Shown: piece by piece, positions 11,825 to 15,495 of the stretch
Layout: every line of letters starts with the position of its first letter
Position numbering within the stretch: the stretch's first letter is position 1
Assembly (NCBI RefSeq): GCF_000495475.1
Contig: NZ_ASGZ01000062.1
Location: 1 to 38,857 of the forward strand
Length of the DNA: 38,857 nucleotides
Direction: 5' to 3'
From: Candidatus Halobonum tyrrellensis G22
GTDB taxonomy: Archaea > Halobacteriota > Halobacteria > Halobacteriales > Haloferacaceae
The notes under the pieces: model-generated
Seen by the model: the letters and a program-made list of their open reading frames with translations, nothing else
Told to the model about the DNA's origin: nothing
Databases searched by the model: none
Made by a program: the position numbers and the translations under genes

Positions 11825-12940
11825 TCAGTAGACTACCTCGCGCACGTCGCTCGCGCCGGCGCGGCGGACGACCGCCCGGACGGGGTCGCGGACGCCCGCA
11901 AGGTTGTTCGAGTCGCCGTCGAGTACCAGCAGGTTCGCCGGGCGGCCCGCCTCGACGACGCCGCAGTCGAGCCCCGCTATCTCGGCGCCGTTGACCGTCG
12001 CCATCCGGAGCACCTCGACGGCGTCCGCCTCGCACAGTTTGGCGGCGAACTCCATCTCGCGGAACATCGACGGGGAGTTGAGCATCACGTTGTCCGTCCC
12101 GAGCGCGACCGTCGTCCGGTCGAGCAACTCCCGGAGCGGCGGCGGGCCGACGTTCGTGACGAGGTTCGACCGCGGGCAGACGACCACCGGCACCCCCGCG
12201 TCGGCGAGTCGGTCGAGGTGGTGCGGCTCGGGGTGGACCATGTGGACCAGGTGGTCCGGGTCGAGGTCCATCGCGGCGTCGACGTCGTGGGGGTCGCGCT
12301 CGCCCGCGTGGATGCCGAACAGTTTGCCTGCTCGCCGGGTCGCCGCCCGCTCGCGCTCGAACTCAGCGTCGCGCGCGCCGCTCGCGCCGAACCCCGCGGC
12401 GGCGTCGTGTTCCATCGCGGCCACCTCCTCGCGGCCGAGCACGACGCTGTCGACGGGGACGCCCCCGCCCGCCTCCTCGATGATGTCGACGCCCTCGACG
12501 CCGCCCTCGCGGAACTCGACGTGGGCGGCGGTCCCCGTCTCGGCCATGTACCGCAGCGACCGCCGGATCGCGTCGACCTTCTCGCGGCGGGGCGTCTCCC
12601 GCAGCAGCCGGTGTTTCAGCCCGTCGGGCGGCGCGACGAGTTCGTCGAGCGACAGCCCGCGGCCCGCCTCCTTGGCGATGGAGTCGGCGACGTGGGTGTG
12701 GGCGTTGACGAACGCCGGCAGCACGACGTCCGTCGAGTCGGTCGAGTCGAGCTCCTCCACCGCCGCGATCTCGCCGTCCTCGACGACGACGCGGCCGGTC
12801 ACCGCCTCGAACGACTCGCCCGCGAGCACCGTCCCCTCGAACGTTCGGGTCCCCTCGCTCGCGTCGGTGAGCGTCACGCCCGCGGTGCCGCCGTCGGTTC
12901 GCGGCCCGCCGTCGCCGCTCGCGTCCCGGTTCCCGCGCAT
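11825..12940 (-). CDS. Amidohydrolase family deaminase/hydrolase (COG0402-like)
   Basis: This 371-residue metal-dependent amidohydrolase has a beta-domain start (GRVVVEDGEIAAVEEL), then AFVNAHTHVADS giving the HxH metal ligands H81 and H83. IHAGE follows (H211, E214), then a further histidine in LVHMVHPEPHH (about 233) and the catalytic Asp in GTDN (D283). The CPRSN motif near 255 and the HAGE pattern resemble cytosine, guanine or S-adenosylhomocysteine/methylthioadenosine deaminases, but the substrate cannot be named. Its ATG directly follows the stop of the upstream HD phosphohydrolase (TAGATG), so the two are one transcript. That pairing suggests a nucleoside released by the HD enzyme as a possible substrate. 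The first 25 residues are disordered. Confidence 0.85.
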   Translation of the reverse strand: MRGNRDASGDGGPRTDGGTAGVTLTDASEGTRTFEGTVLAGESFEAVTGRVVVEDGEIAAVEELDSTDSTDVVLPAFVNAHTHVADSIAKEAGRGLSLDELVAPPDGLKHRLLRETPRREKVDAIRRSLRYMAETGTAAHVEFREGGVEGVDIIEEAGGGVPVDSVVLGREEVAAMEHDAAAGFGASGARDAEFERERAATRRAGKLFGIHAGERDPHDVDAAMDLDPDHLVHMVHPEPHHLDRLADAGVPVVVCPRSNLVTNVGPPPLRELLDRTTVALGTDNVMLNSPSMFREMEFAAKLCEADAVEVLRMATVNGAEIAGLDCGVVEAGRPANLLVLDGDSNNLAGVRDPVRAVVRRAGASDVREVVY

Positions 12941-14176
12941 CTACTCGGCCTCCGTGGTGAACTCGTCGAGCGTGGTGTGCGCGCGCCGCCGCACGTCCGA
13001 CACCAGCGCGCCGTCGATGTCGAGTCCGAGCGCGTCCGCCGCCGCGGTGCCCACCCGCTCGGTGGCCGCGCGGGTGGTGTAGACGCCGAGCCGCCACTGC
13101 TGTCGTTGGGCGGTCCGGAGCGCGGTCACCAGCGGCGACTGGTCCTCCAGTCGTCTGACGTCGCCGTTGACCACCACCTCGGTCGTCGACTCCTTCATCG
13201 ACGGCTCGGCGGGCACGTCGACGATGACCGCCTCGGGGTCGAGTTCGCACGCCTCCGCCACCTCCGTCTCGACGTCGCGAACCTCCTCGTGGTCCAGTTC
13301 GCGGACGCGGTCGGGCACGTCGTCGTACTCGACCCAGACGGCGCGCTTGAACAGGTCGCGCGCGTCGTACCGCTCGGCGAACGCCCCCGTCTCCGGGTTC
13401 GACCGGAGCGCGACCAACAGCGCGGGGTCGTCCATCCGGCGGACGCCCGCGGGGTCGATGTCGGGGGCGTCGAGCAGCCGCTCGGTCGCCCGCCGGAGCA
13501 TCGCCTTGCTGATGCGCGCGACCGGGTGGGTGTAGACGGTCGGGTTCATCAGCGCGCGCGCCACCAGCAGCGACTCGGCGGTCTGGACGTTCCCCTCCGC
13601 GAGCACCAACTCGCCGTCGACGAACGTCAGCTCCCGCACCAGCCGCTCGTGGTCGACGGTGCCGTAGGGGACGCCGGTGTGGTGGGCGTCGCGCACGAGG
13701 TAGTCCATCCGGTCGACGTCGAGTTCCCCCGAGACCAACTGGCCGTACTGGCCGTCGCCGCCGATGAGTCCCGCGACCCGCTCGGGGTCGAGGTCGTGGG
13801 CCGCGAGCACGTCACCCAGCTCCGTCCGCTCGATGAGGCCGCCCACGTCGTCGTGGTACAGCCCCGTCCGGCGGTGGAGCAACTCCTCGACGTTATGGCT
13901 GAACGGCGCGTGGCCCACGTCGTGTAGCAGGGCCGCCGCGCGGACCCGCTCGGCCTGCCGCCCCTCGACGCCGAGGTGGGCGAGCGCGCGGTCGGCGAGG
14001 TAGTAGACTCCCAGCGAGTGTTCGAACCGGGTGTGGTTCGCCGACGGGTAGACGAGTTTCACGGTGCCGAGTTGGGCGACCCGGCGGAGCCGCTGGACGG
14101 GCTTCGTGTCGAGTAAGTCGGCGGCGACGCCCGTCACCTCGATGTGGTCGTGCACCGAGTCCTTGATCGTCGTCAC
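12941..14176 (-). CDS. HD-domain phosphohydrolase, SAMHD1-like (copy 1)
   Basis: This 411-residue HD hydrolase of the SAMHD1/COG1078 type is a candidate dNTP triphosphohydrolase releasing a deoxynucleoside and triphosphate. It begins TTIKDSVHDHIEV, matching the DPVHG-type start of the family. The metal set is H53 (TRFEHSLG), H85-D86 (LLHDVGHAPFSH) and D155 (ELDVDRMDYLVRDAHH). A C-terminal alpha/beta tail has PLVTALRTAQRQQWRLGVYT. The GTG start is set by a GGAGG six bases upstream and overlaps the stop of a leaderless micro-ORF (GTGA). It has a paralogue directly upstream and an amidohydrolase directly downstream. The true substrate (dNTPs or other nucleotides) is not shown by sequence. Confidence 0.88.
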   Translation of the reverse strand: MTTIKDSVHDHIEVTGVAADLLDTKPVQRLRRVAQLGTVKLVYPSANHTRFEHSLGVYYLADRALAHLGVEGRQAERVRAAALLHDVGHAPFSHNVEELLHRRTGLYHDDVGGLIERTELGDVLAAHDLDPERVAGLIGGDGQYGQLVSGELDVDRMDYLVRDAHHTGVPYGTVDHERLVRELTFVDGELVLAEGNVQTAESLLVARALMNPTVYTHPVARISKAMLRRATERLLDAPDIDPAGVRRMDDPALLVALRSNPETGAFAERYDARDLFKRAVWVEYDDVPDRVRELDHEEVRDVETEVAEACELDPEAVIVDVPAEPSMKESTTEVVVNGDVRRLEDQSPLVTALRTAQRQQWRLGVYTTRAATERVGTAAADALGLDIDGALVSDVRRRAHTTLDEFTTEAE

Positions 14177-14232
14177 GGCGGCCCTCCCGCCGCACACCGG
14201 GCGCGGCCGACATCCCAAGCGAACGCTGTCAT
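14173..14232 (-). CDS. Candidate leaderless micro-ORF upstream of HD copy 1 (19 aa)
   Basis: ATG at 14232 opens a 19-codon frame (MTAFAWDVGRARCAAGGPP) whose TGA (14175-14173) overlaps the GTG start of the HD gene as GTGA. The TTTTTA element at 14257-14262 is centred 27 nt upstream of this ATG, the standard distance for a leaderless transcript. The HD gene start lies 56 nt further in. The GGAGG that serves the HD gene is inside the micro-ORF. Translation is inferred, not shown. Confidence 0.5.
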   Translation of the reverse strand: MTAFAWDVGRARCAAGGPP

Positions 14233-14234
14233 GG

Positions 14235-14268
14235 CCGGGAGTTGGCCGTCCCGGGGTAAAAAGTACCC
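14235..14268 (-). promoter_or_regulatory. Promoter of HD copy 1 with nested inverted repeats
   Basis: The TATA core TTTTTA (14262-14257) is framed by the inverted repeat GGGTA and TACCC (14254-14268). A second inverted repeat, CCGGGA and TCCCGG (14235-14254), lies between the TATA element and the predicted start. Symmetric sites at these positions could bind a repressor; no known operator matches. Confidence 0.45.
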
Positions 14269-14328
14269 GCGGCGCGAGGCGGGGCGGACCGCCGGCGGGC
14301 GCGGGCGGCGCCGGGGGGTCGTCCGCGG

Positions 14329-15495
14329 TCAGGCGGTCCGACCCGCGCGGACGCCGAGTACGTCCTCGGCGGCGGCGGCCACCGCGGGCACGCACGCTTC
14401 GGGGGCGTACACGCCCATCCGCCAGCCCGCCCGCTGGGCGGCGCGCAGCCCCGAGACGAGTTCGGAGGCGTCCTCCAGCCGCTGGGGGACGCCGTCGACC
14501 ACCACCCGGCTGCCCGCCTCGGTGAACGTCGGCCGGCCGGGCACGTCGACTATCACCTCGTCGCTCCCGACGCCCGCGCGGTCGGCTATCTCGCGTTCGG
14601 CGTCGCGCTCGTCGGCGTGGTCGAACTCCGCCACGTCCGCGGGCGTGCCCGACAGGTCCGTCCAGACGGCGCGTTTGAACAGGTCGCGGTACTCGATGCG
14701 CCGGCCGAGGTCGGGTACCTCGCGCCTGAGCGCGACCAGCAGGTCGTGGTCAGCCATCCGGCGGAACTCCTCGACCCCCGTTCCGGCGGCGAGCAGGCGC
14801 TCGGAGGCGCGTTCGAGCATCGCGCCCGCGATACGCGAGACGTGGTGACGATAGACGGTCGCGTCCATCAGCGCGCGCGCCACCAGCAGCGACTCGGCGG
14901 TCTGGACGTTCCCCTCCGCGAGCACGAGGTGGCCCTCGCGGTAGTCGAGTTCCCTGACGAGGCGGCCGTGGTCGATGGTGCCGTAGGGGACGCCGGTGTG
15001 GTGGGCGTCGCGCACGAGGTAGTCCATCCGGTCGACGTCGAGTTCCCCCGACACCAACTGGCCGAGTTCGCCCTCGCCGCGGACGATGGCGGCCACGCGG
15101 TCGGGGTCGAGGTCGTGGTCGCGGAGGACGGCGGCGGCGTCCGTACCCTCGAGCAGGTCGCGGATCTCGTCGTGGTGGCGGCCGGTGCGCCGGCGGATGA
15201 CCTCCTCGGTCTGGTGGCCGTACGGGCCGTGGCCCACGTCGTGTAGCAGGGCGGCCGCCCGGAGGTGACGCGCCCGGTCGCCGTCGACGCCGAGGTGGGC
15301 GAGCGCGCGGTCGGCGAGGTGGTACACCCCCAGCGAGTGCTCGAACCGGGTGTGTGAGGCCGACGGGTAGACCAGCCGGACGGTCGACAGCTGCTTGACG
15401 TGACGGAGCCGCTGGACCGCGCGCGTGTCGAGCAAGTCGGCCGCGGCGTCGTCTAGGGTGATGTAGTCGTGGACGCTGTCCTTGATGGCCTTCAT
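14329..15495 (-). CDS. HD-domain phosphohydrolase, SAMHD1-like (copy 2)
   Basis: This 388-residue tandem paralogue of the downstream HD gene has the same order and spacing of motifs. It starts MKAIKDSVHDYITLD, has H53 in TRFEHSLG, H85-D86 in LLHDVGHGPYGH, and DVDRMDYLVRDAHH for the last metal ligand. All metal ligands are kept, so both copies should be active. The insert after the HD motif differs in charge (QTEEVIRRRTGRHHDEI), and the C-terminus is shorter by about 20 residues. Several long DNA blocks are identical to copy 1, consistent with gene conversion. The ATG has a CGTTTCACG element about 35 nt upstream, so a short leader is likely. Its stop is about 100 bp from the copy 1 micro-ORF. 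Confidence 0.88.
   Translation of the reverse strand: MKAIKDSVHDYITLDDAAADLLDTRAVQRLRHVKQLSTVRLVYPSASHTRFEHSLGVYHLADRALAHLGVDGDRARHLRAAALLHDVGHGPYGHQTEEVIRRRTGRHHDEIRDLLEGTDAAAVLRDHDLDPDRVAAIVRGEGELGQLVSGELDVDRMDYLVRDAHHTGVPYGTIDHGRLVRELDYREGHLVLAEGNVQTAESLLVARALMDATVYRHHVSRIAGAMLERASERLLAAGTGVEEFRRMADHDLLVALRREVPDLGRRIEYRDLFKRAVWTDLSGTPADVAEFDHADERDAEREIADRAGVGSDEVIVDVPGRPTFTEAGSRVVVDGVPQRLEDASELVSGLRAAQRAGWRMGVYAPEACVPAVAAAAEDVLGVRAGRTA

What the first reader, a model, noticed from the sequence alone, without database searches (positions are those of the whole stretch)
14173..14232. 19-codon leaderless leader peptide before the SAMHD1-like gene, GTGA overlap
The TATA core is exactly 27 nt before the ATG of MTAFAWDVGRARCAAGGPP, whose TGA overlaps the GTG start of the HD phosphohydrolase. 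The GGAGG of the HD gene lies inside the micro-ORF, so ribosomes could arrive either by reinitiation or directly. The promoter itself carries two nested inverted repeats. This is the best-formed of the three micro-ORF cases.
Basis: partly seen in the sequence, partly recalled or inferred. Interest (0 to 1): 0.6.

Follow-up and report, generated by a model that had tools for sequence, protein, structure and literature searches.

The report
Leaderless micro-ORF coupled to HD gene
In this salt-loving archaeon the messenger RNA of an HD-domain (SAMHD1-like) enzyme gene most likely begins directly with a 19-codon mini-gene whose stop codon overlaps the enzyme's start codon, so that ribosomes probably finish the mini-gene and restart on the enzyme; four related species keep this layout although the mini-peptide itself changes, and nearly all other relatives lack it.

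Summary

Comparison shows what it is. In 203 of 207 distinct ortholog upstreams the TATA-like box lies about 27 nt before the HD start codon itself (ordinary leaderless gene, no micro-ORF). The four exceptions are the window genome and three species of its probable sister genus. There the same promoter sits 27 nt before an upstream ATG that opens an 18-26-codon ORF. The spacings differ (53, 56, 74, 77 nt), but every ORF ends in an RTGA overlap with the HD start. A promoter matrix built from the leaderless orthologs independently picks the upstream ATG in all four. GGAGG (3/4 vs 1/203) and GTG starts (3/4 vs 7/203) are enriched. The peptides are not conserved beyond the first codons.

Best reading: a leaderless ribosome-delivery ORF that feeds HD translation by termination-reinitiation, having replaced the ancestral leaderless start once in this clade. 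Both halves of the mechanism are published (mycobacteria; Haloferax), so this is a new, apparently first archaeal, member of a known kind. Transcript start and translation are inferred, not measured.

The parts
14257..14262 (-). TATA-like box TTTTTA, centre 27.5 nt upstream of the micro-ORF ATG
   Evidence: Sequence. Matrix from 174 leaderless orthologs peaks at this anchor, score 19.5 vs -22.4 at the HD start
14242..14243 (-). AA at -11/-10, the haloarchaeal promoter-proximal WW element
   Evidence: Sequence. A 0.71/0.70 at -11/-10 in orthologs. WW motif described in PMC4983044
14173..14232 (-). micro-ORF MTAFAWDVGRARCAAGGPP*, predicted to be translated from the 5' end of the mRNA
   Evidence: Same architecture with other sequence and length in L010, L120, L127
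14183..14187 (-). GGAGG Shine-Dalgarno-like motif inside the micro-ORF, 6 nt before the HD GTG
   Evidence: 3/4 derived genomes vs 1/203 leaderless orthologs
14173..14176 (-). GTGA: stop codon of the micro-ORF overlapping the start codon of the HD gene (-4 overlap)
   Evidence: RTGA overlap in 4/4 derived genomes
12941..14176 (-). HD-domain phosphohydrolase gene, 411 aa, SAMHD1 superfamily (HD + HD_assoc_2)
   Evidence: Pfam PF01966 and PF19276. PDB relatives 2hek, 2q14, 2o6i, SAMHD1
11825..12940 (-). amidohydrolase-family gene whose ATG directly follows the HD stop codon (0 nt between); probably co-transcribed
14329..15495 (-). tandem paralogous HD gene upstream, 388 aa; its stop is 66 nt before the TATA box

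Best explanation
Transcription starts at or within a base or two of A14232, so the mRNA is leaderless with respect to a 19-codon micro-ORF. A ribosome starts on the 5'-terminal AUG, translates the 19 codons, terminates at UGA 14175-14173 and, held by the GGAGG-anti-SD contact and the GUGA overlap, reinitiates at GUG 14176 to make the HD enzyme (termination-reinitiation). The micro-ORF's job is ribosome delivery; its peptide is not selected for sequence. It arose once, in the ancestor of the window's genus and its sister genus, when about 50-80 nt of new sequence came to lie between the old leaderless start and the HD coding sequence. The old promoter and start AUG stayed in use, and the gene was kept expressible by frame, overlap and SD. 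Shown: sequence anatomy, homologous promoter position, retention in four genomes, clade restriction. Inferred: transcript 5' end, translation of the micro-ORF, coupling, selection.
For: Promoter homology: 203 of 207 distinct ortholog upstreams have an AT-rich box centred about -27 of the HD start; only the window genome and the three g17 genomes do not. The ortholog matrix peaks exactly at the uATG (-56, -77, -74, -53) in these four, scores 19.5-29.9, against -17 to -22 at the HD start. Frame: the spacings are all 2 mod 3, all with RTGA overlap, despite at least three length changes (about (1/3)^3 by chance). GGAGG 3/4 vs 1/203 (p = 1e-5) and GTG HD start 3/4 vs 7/203 (p = 3e-4), as expected if the HD codon is no longer 5'-terminal (rows are phylogenetically related). 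Fourfold-site identity is only 0.56-0.63 (chance 0.45) among the four genomes, so the retention spans large divergence. One origin: window genome + g17 sister, SH-aLRT 81-89 / UFBoot 79-85. Mechanism precedent: strict coupling in 9/9 H. volcanii overlapping pairs and no de novo initiation downstream (PMC6728339); -4 overlap the commonest spacing in H. volcanii (PMC10666635); the last 15 nt of an upstream ORF suffice in E. coli. A second gene (Nramp family) in the window genome and in G136 shows the same change from leaderless to coupled micro-ORF.
Against: No transcript or ribosome data for these organisms. Only four genomes carry it, three from one genus. Because most HD genes begin RTGA, any upstream ATG with spacing 2 mod 3 gives the overlap, so the frame evidence is only about p = 0.04. 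The start-codon neighbourhood in g17 is conserved as DNA without a synonymous pattern (MTRL/MIRF), so ATG retention may partly reflect initiator constraint. One of four (L120) has only GGGGGA instead of GGAGG. Sister grouping has moderate support. A genome-wide scan gives no clear clade enrichment of the arrangement (3, 3, 1, 1 hits per about 400 kb).
Confidence: 0.72

Rival explanations
1. Ordinary 5'-UTR: the leader is untranslated or irrelevant, the ATG at the transcript start is a relic of the old leaderless start, and the HD gene is initiated directly at GTG 14176, with or without GGAGG.
For: GGAGG at 6-8 nt in three of four derived genomes; leadered mRNAs are about 28% of H. volcanii coding transcripts (PMC4983044); overlap frame expected in 1/3 of cases.
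Against: In H. [quoted passage not shown] uATG and RTGA frame are retained in 4/4 genomes at nearly saturated neutral divergence.
Confidence: 0.15
2. Regulatory leader peptide or attenuator: the peptide, its codons or an RNA structure sense a signal and tune HD expression.
For: Position before a nucleotide-metabolism type gene; leaderless uORFs have been proposed as regulators in some bacteria (cysteine-rich uORFs, PMC4633059).
Against: Peptides differ almost completely (MTAFAWDVGRARCAAGGPP, MTRLVPPPASAPLARDGGGDRRGGDR, MTRLAAPSRRGAPRSHGRYPRGDHA, MIRFVAAPTTRSHRRVPA), with no repeated control codon and no structure shared by the four individual folds. No Rfam match.
Confidence: 0.07
3. -1 frameshift fusion: ribosomes slip at the overlap and make an HD protein with an N-terminal extension encoded by the micro-ORF.
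For: The two frames stand in a -1 relation in all four genomes.
Against: No slippery heptamer in any of the four leaders; the extension would not be conserved; the ortholog N-terminus begins at the RTG.
Confidence: 0.02
4. Chance: a promoter with an ATG 27 nt downstream happens to open a short ORF; no function.
For: Similar layouts at control spacings occur about 0.9 times per 436 kb.
Against: The same layout at the same gene in four genomes with different leader lengths, at the homologous promoter position.
Confidence: 0.04

Closest known systems
RTGA-coupled leaderless small ORFs of mycobacteria (Shell et al. 2015, PMC4633059)
   Same: 5'-terminal RTG opens a small ORF (5-50 aa) whose TGA overlaps the RTG of the annotated gene; linkage kept between species while the peptide diverges; SD-like purines in the junction
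   Different: Bacteria, with 5' ends mapped experimentally; there the downstream gene may also be started by SD. Here archaeal, predicted only, and derived from a gene that was leaderless itself
Termination-reinitiation at overlapping gene pairs in Haloferax volcanii (Huber et al. 2019, PMC6728339; 2023, PMC10666635)
   Same: -4 nt ATGA/GTGA overlap, intragenic SD motif, haloarchaeal host
   Different: The published pairs are two full genes; here the upstream partner is 18-26 codons and seems to have no product role
uORFs of 15-31 codons in long 5'-UTRs of H. volcanii (Babski et al. 2016, PMC4983044)
   Same: Small ORFs in the leader of haloarchaeal mRNAs
   Different: Found in 150-250 nt 5'-UTRs, peptides of low isoelectric point; no overlap or coupling described in the text read here. 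Here a 56-nt leader and neutral-to-basic peptides
MIRU elements of mycobacteria (reviewed in PMC12548453)
   Same: Sequence inserted at a start codon, with a short ORF coupled at -4 nt so that expression survives
   Different: MIRUs are repeated mobile elements; the leader here has no second copy in the genome and g17 leaders show no shared insert

Membership tests
Leaderless RTGA-coupled small ORF (Shell et al. 2015) | mRNA 5' end at the RTG of the small ORF | not testable with these tools
   Predicted only: TATA -27.5, AA -11/-10, ortholog matrix peak at the uATG
Leaderless RTGA-coupled small ORF (Shell et al. 2015) | ORF of 5-50 codons | tested here: met
   19 codons; 18-26 in relatives
Leaderless RTGA-coupled small ORF (Shell et al. 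2015) | Stop TGA overlaps RTG start of the next gene | tested here: met
   GTGA 14176-14173; RTGA in 4/4 derived genomes
Leaderless RTGA-coupled small ORF (Shell et al. 2015) | Coupled linkage conserved more than peptide sequence | tested here: met
   Four genomes, different peptides and lengths, same overlap
Termination-reinitiation pair (haloarchaeal) | Overlap or intergenic distance within -8 to +6 nt | tested here: met
   -4 nt
Termination-reinitiation pair (haloarchaeal) | Downstream translation depends on translation of the upstream ORF | not testable with these tools
   Needs a reporter with a premature stop
Attenuator leader peptide | Conserved or repeated control codons and alternative RNA structures | tested here: not met
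   Peptides diverge, no codon run, no shared fold among individual folds, no Rfam match
HD-domain phosphohydrolase (SAMHD1 superfamily) | HD domain (PF01966) with HD-associated region (PF19276) | tested here: met
   E 6.6e-11 and 7.5e-92; PDB 2hek E 7e-44, SAMHD1 E about 1e-22
HD-domain phosphohydrolase (SAMHD1 superfamily) | dNTP triphosphohydrolase activity | not testable with these tools
   Scores far below the NCBIfam dGTPase cut-offs, so substrate unknown

The most novel reading that the evidence does not exclude
In this haloarchaeal clade, leaderless genes are repeatedly converted into leaderless micro-ORF plus reinitiation pairs (HD gene in four genomes, Nramp gene in two), i.e. ribosome-delivery ORFs are a general archaeal solution for genes that lose their 5'-terminal start codon, in organisms where SD cannot start translation de novo.
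Probability: 0.3. Interest if true: 0.65.

Novelty: new member of a known kind. Interest (0 to 1): 0.5.

Why it matters
It appears to be the first archaeal example of a leaderless ORF whose only job is to hand a ribosome to the next gene, and it comes with its evolutionary 'before' state in about 200 relatives. That makes a clean test possible: in haloarchaea, where SD does not start translation de novo, a gene pushed off the 5' end of its mRNA should survive only by coupling. It also warns annotators that such RTG starts are genuine even though they are neither leaderless nor SD-initiated.

Tried and rejected
Mobile-element origin of the extra leader: no second copy in the own genome. Promoter inverted repeats as operator: weak against shuffles and absent in the sister genomes. 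Known RNA element: no Rfam match. -1 frameshift: no slippery site. Conserved peptide: no. Clade-wide abundance of the arrangement: 3, 3, 1, 1 hits in about 400 kb each of the window genome, G136, Halobaculum and Haloferax, too few to claim enrichment. The HD protein tree alone did not resolve the sister group; RpoA1 + AlaS, with or without HD, gave moderate support. The first RpoA1/AlaS tree attempt used wrong-strand ORFs and was discarded.

Full report
What is there. On the minus strand the sequence reads TATA-like TTTTTA (14262-14257), AA at 14243-14242, ATG 14232, 19 codons MTAFAWDVGRARCAAGGPP, and TGA 14175-14173 overlapping GTG 14176-14174 of a 411-aa HD-domain protein. GGAGG (14187-14183) lies 6 nt before the GTG. 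The GTG is the right start of the HD gene: the ortholog N-termini (MTTIKDSVHDHI...) align there. The protein carries PF01966 HD and PF19276 HD_assoc_2 and resembles solved HD phosphohydrolases 2hek, 2q14, 2o6i and SAMHD1, so 'SAMHD1-like' is fair at superfamily level; it falls far below the dGTPase model cut-offs. A tandem paralog lies upstream (14329-15495) and an amidohydrolase-family gene follows directly (11825-12940).

The ancestral state. I collected HD orthologs from named genomes and from the relatives and family genomes of the window's assembly. Among 207 distinct upstream regions, 203 have an AT-rich hexamer (at least 4 of 6 A/T, nearly all 5-6) centred about 27 nt before the HD start codon, that is, an ordinary haloarchaeal leaderless promoter. 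A matrix built from 174 non-redundant ones shows T-rich -30 to -26 and A at -11/-10, matching the TATA and WW elements reported for haloarchaea (PMC4983044).

The derived state. Only four genomes differ: the window's genome and the three held species of genus g17 (L010 = G016, L120 = G136, L127 = G135). In these the matrix, which knows nothing of ATG or frame, peaks exactly at an upstream ATG, 56, 77, 74 and 53 nt before the HD start (scores 19.5, 25.3, 28.8, 29.9; at the HD start -17 to -22). From that ATG runs an ORF of 19, 26, 25 and 18 codons, and each ends with a TGA overlapping the HD RTG. Lengths differ, yet all are 2 mod 3. The peptides are unrelated after the first residues. GGAGG 6-8 nt before the HD start occurs in 3 of 4 against 1 of 203, and the HD start is GTG in 3 of 4 against 7 of 203. 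The latter fits a start codon no longer at the mRNA's 5' end, since leaderless GUG starts are weak (PMC4983044). These tests treat related genomes as independent and so overstate the significance.

Single origin and age. RpoA1 + AlaS trees place the window's genome with g17, apart from Halobaculum and the rest, with SH-aLRT 81-89 and UFBoot 79-85. Fourfold-degenerate sites of the HD gene are only 56-63% identical among these four genomes (chance about 45%), and HD proteins of the window genome and g17 are 79% identical. The layout has thus outlived most neutral sequence memory.

Mechanism. In H. volcanii, 72% of coding transcripts are leaderless (PMC4983044). All nine overlapping or closely spaced pairs tested are strictly coupled, and no de novo initiation occurs at the downstream SD (PMC6728339). 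SD does not drive initiation at 5'-UTRs there (PMC3986360, abstract). The -4 overlap is the commonest spacing (PMC10666635), and 15 nt of an upstream ORF suffice in E. coli. From these I infer: 5'-terminal AUG initiation, 19 codons, termination at UGA, reinitiation at the overlapping GUG helped by GGAGG.

What is known. The same architecture was described from mapped transcripts in mycobacteria: leaderless small ORFs coupled by an RTGA tetramer, overrepresented, with linkage sometimes conserved while peptide sequence is not (PMC4633059). A 2025 review calls this ribosome delivery and cites MIRU insertions that couple at -4 (PMC12548453). No archaeal case surfaced in the held papers. I therefore file it as a new, probably first archaeal, member of a known kind; what is special is the fully documented leaderless ancestor.

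How exceptional within the genome. Scanning about 400 kb each of the window genome, G136, a Halobaculum and a Haloferax genome for TATA at -27 of a micro-ORF with RTGA overlap gave 3, 3, 1 and 1 cases; control spacings gave about 0.9 per scan in the window genome. So a single instance is weak evidence; the conservation carries the case. One of the other hits, an Nramp-family gene (C2:7300; Pfam), shows the same shift: in G136 (L319) it also has TATA, then ATG, an 18-codon ORF, ATGA overlap and GGAGG, whereas in G025 (L318) and G027 (L320) the Nramp gene is plainly leaderless. Two genes hint at a repeated evolutionary route in this clade, not yet proof.

Limits. No RNA, ribosome or protein data exist here for these organisms; the transcription start, translation and coupling are predictions. 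Four genomes from two genera are few, and the frame argument alone is about 1 in 27.

Noticed in passing
L259:7239-7301 (own genome contig C2) and L319 (G136): An Nramp-family transporter gene shows the same layout in both genomes (TATA, about 27 nt, ATG micro-ORF of 21 / 18 codons, ATGA overlap), while orthologs in G025 (L318) and G027 (L320) are plainly leaderless.
   Followed up: partly
L264:528-652 minus strand (own genome, contig C2 near 100531): A third TATA-led small ORF (41 codons) with AGGAGG and an ATGA overlap precedes a 532-aa ORF; the first 177 residues of that ORF have no Pfam match.
   Followed up: no
window 12941-15495 minus strand: Tandem HD paralogs (61% identical) occur in many Haloferacaceae. 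In g17 about 830-1570 bp of other sequence lies between the two matches; the window's pair is separated by only about 150 bp.
   Followed up: partly
window 12940-12943 minus strand: The HD gene's TGA is followed immediately by the ATG of an amidohydrolase-family gene (0 nt spacing), so a second reinitiation step is likely in the same mRNA.
   Followed up: no
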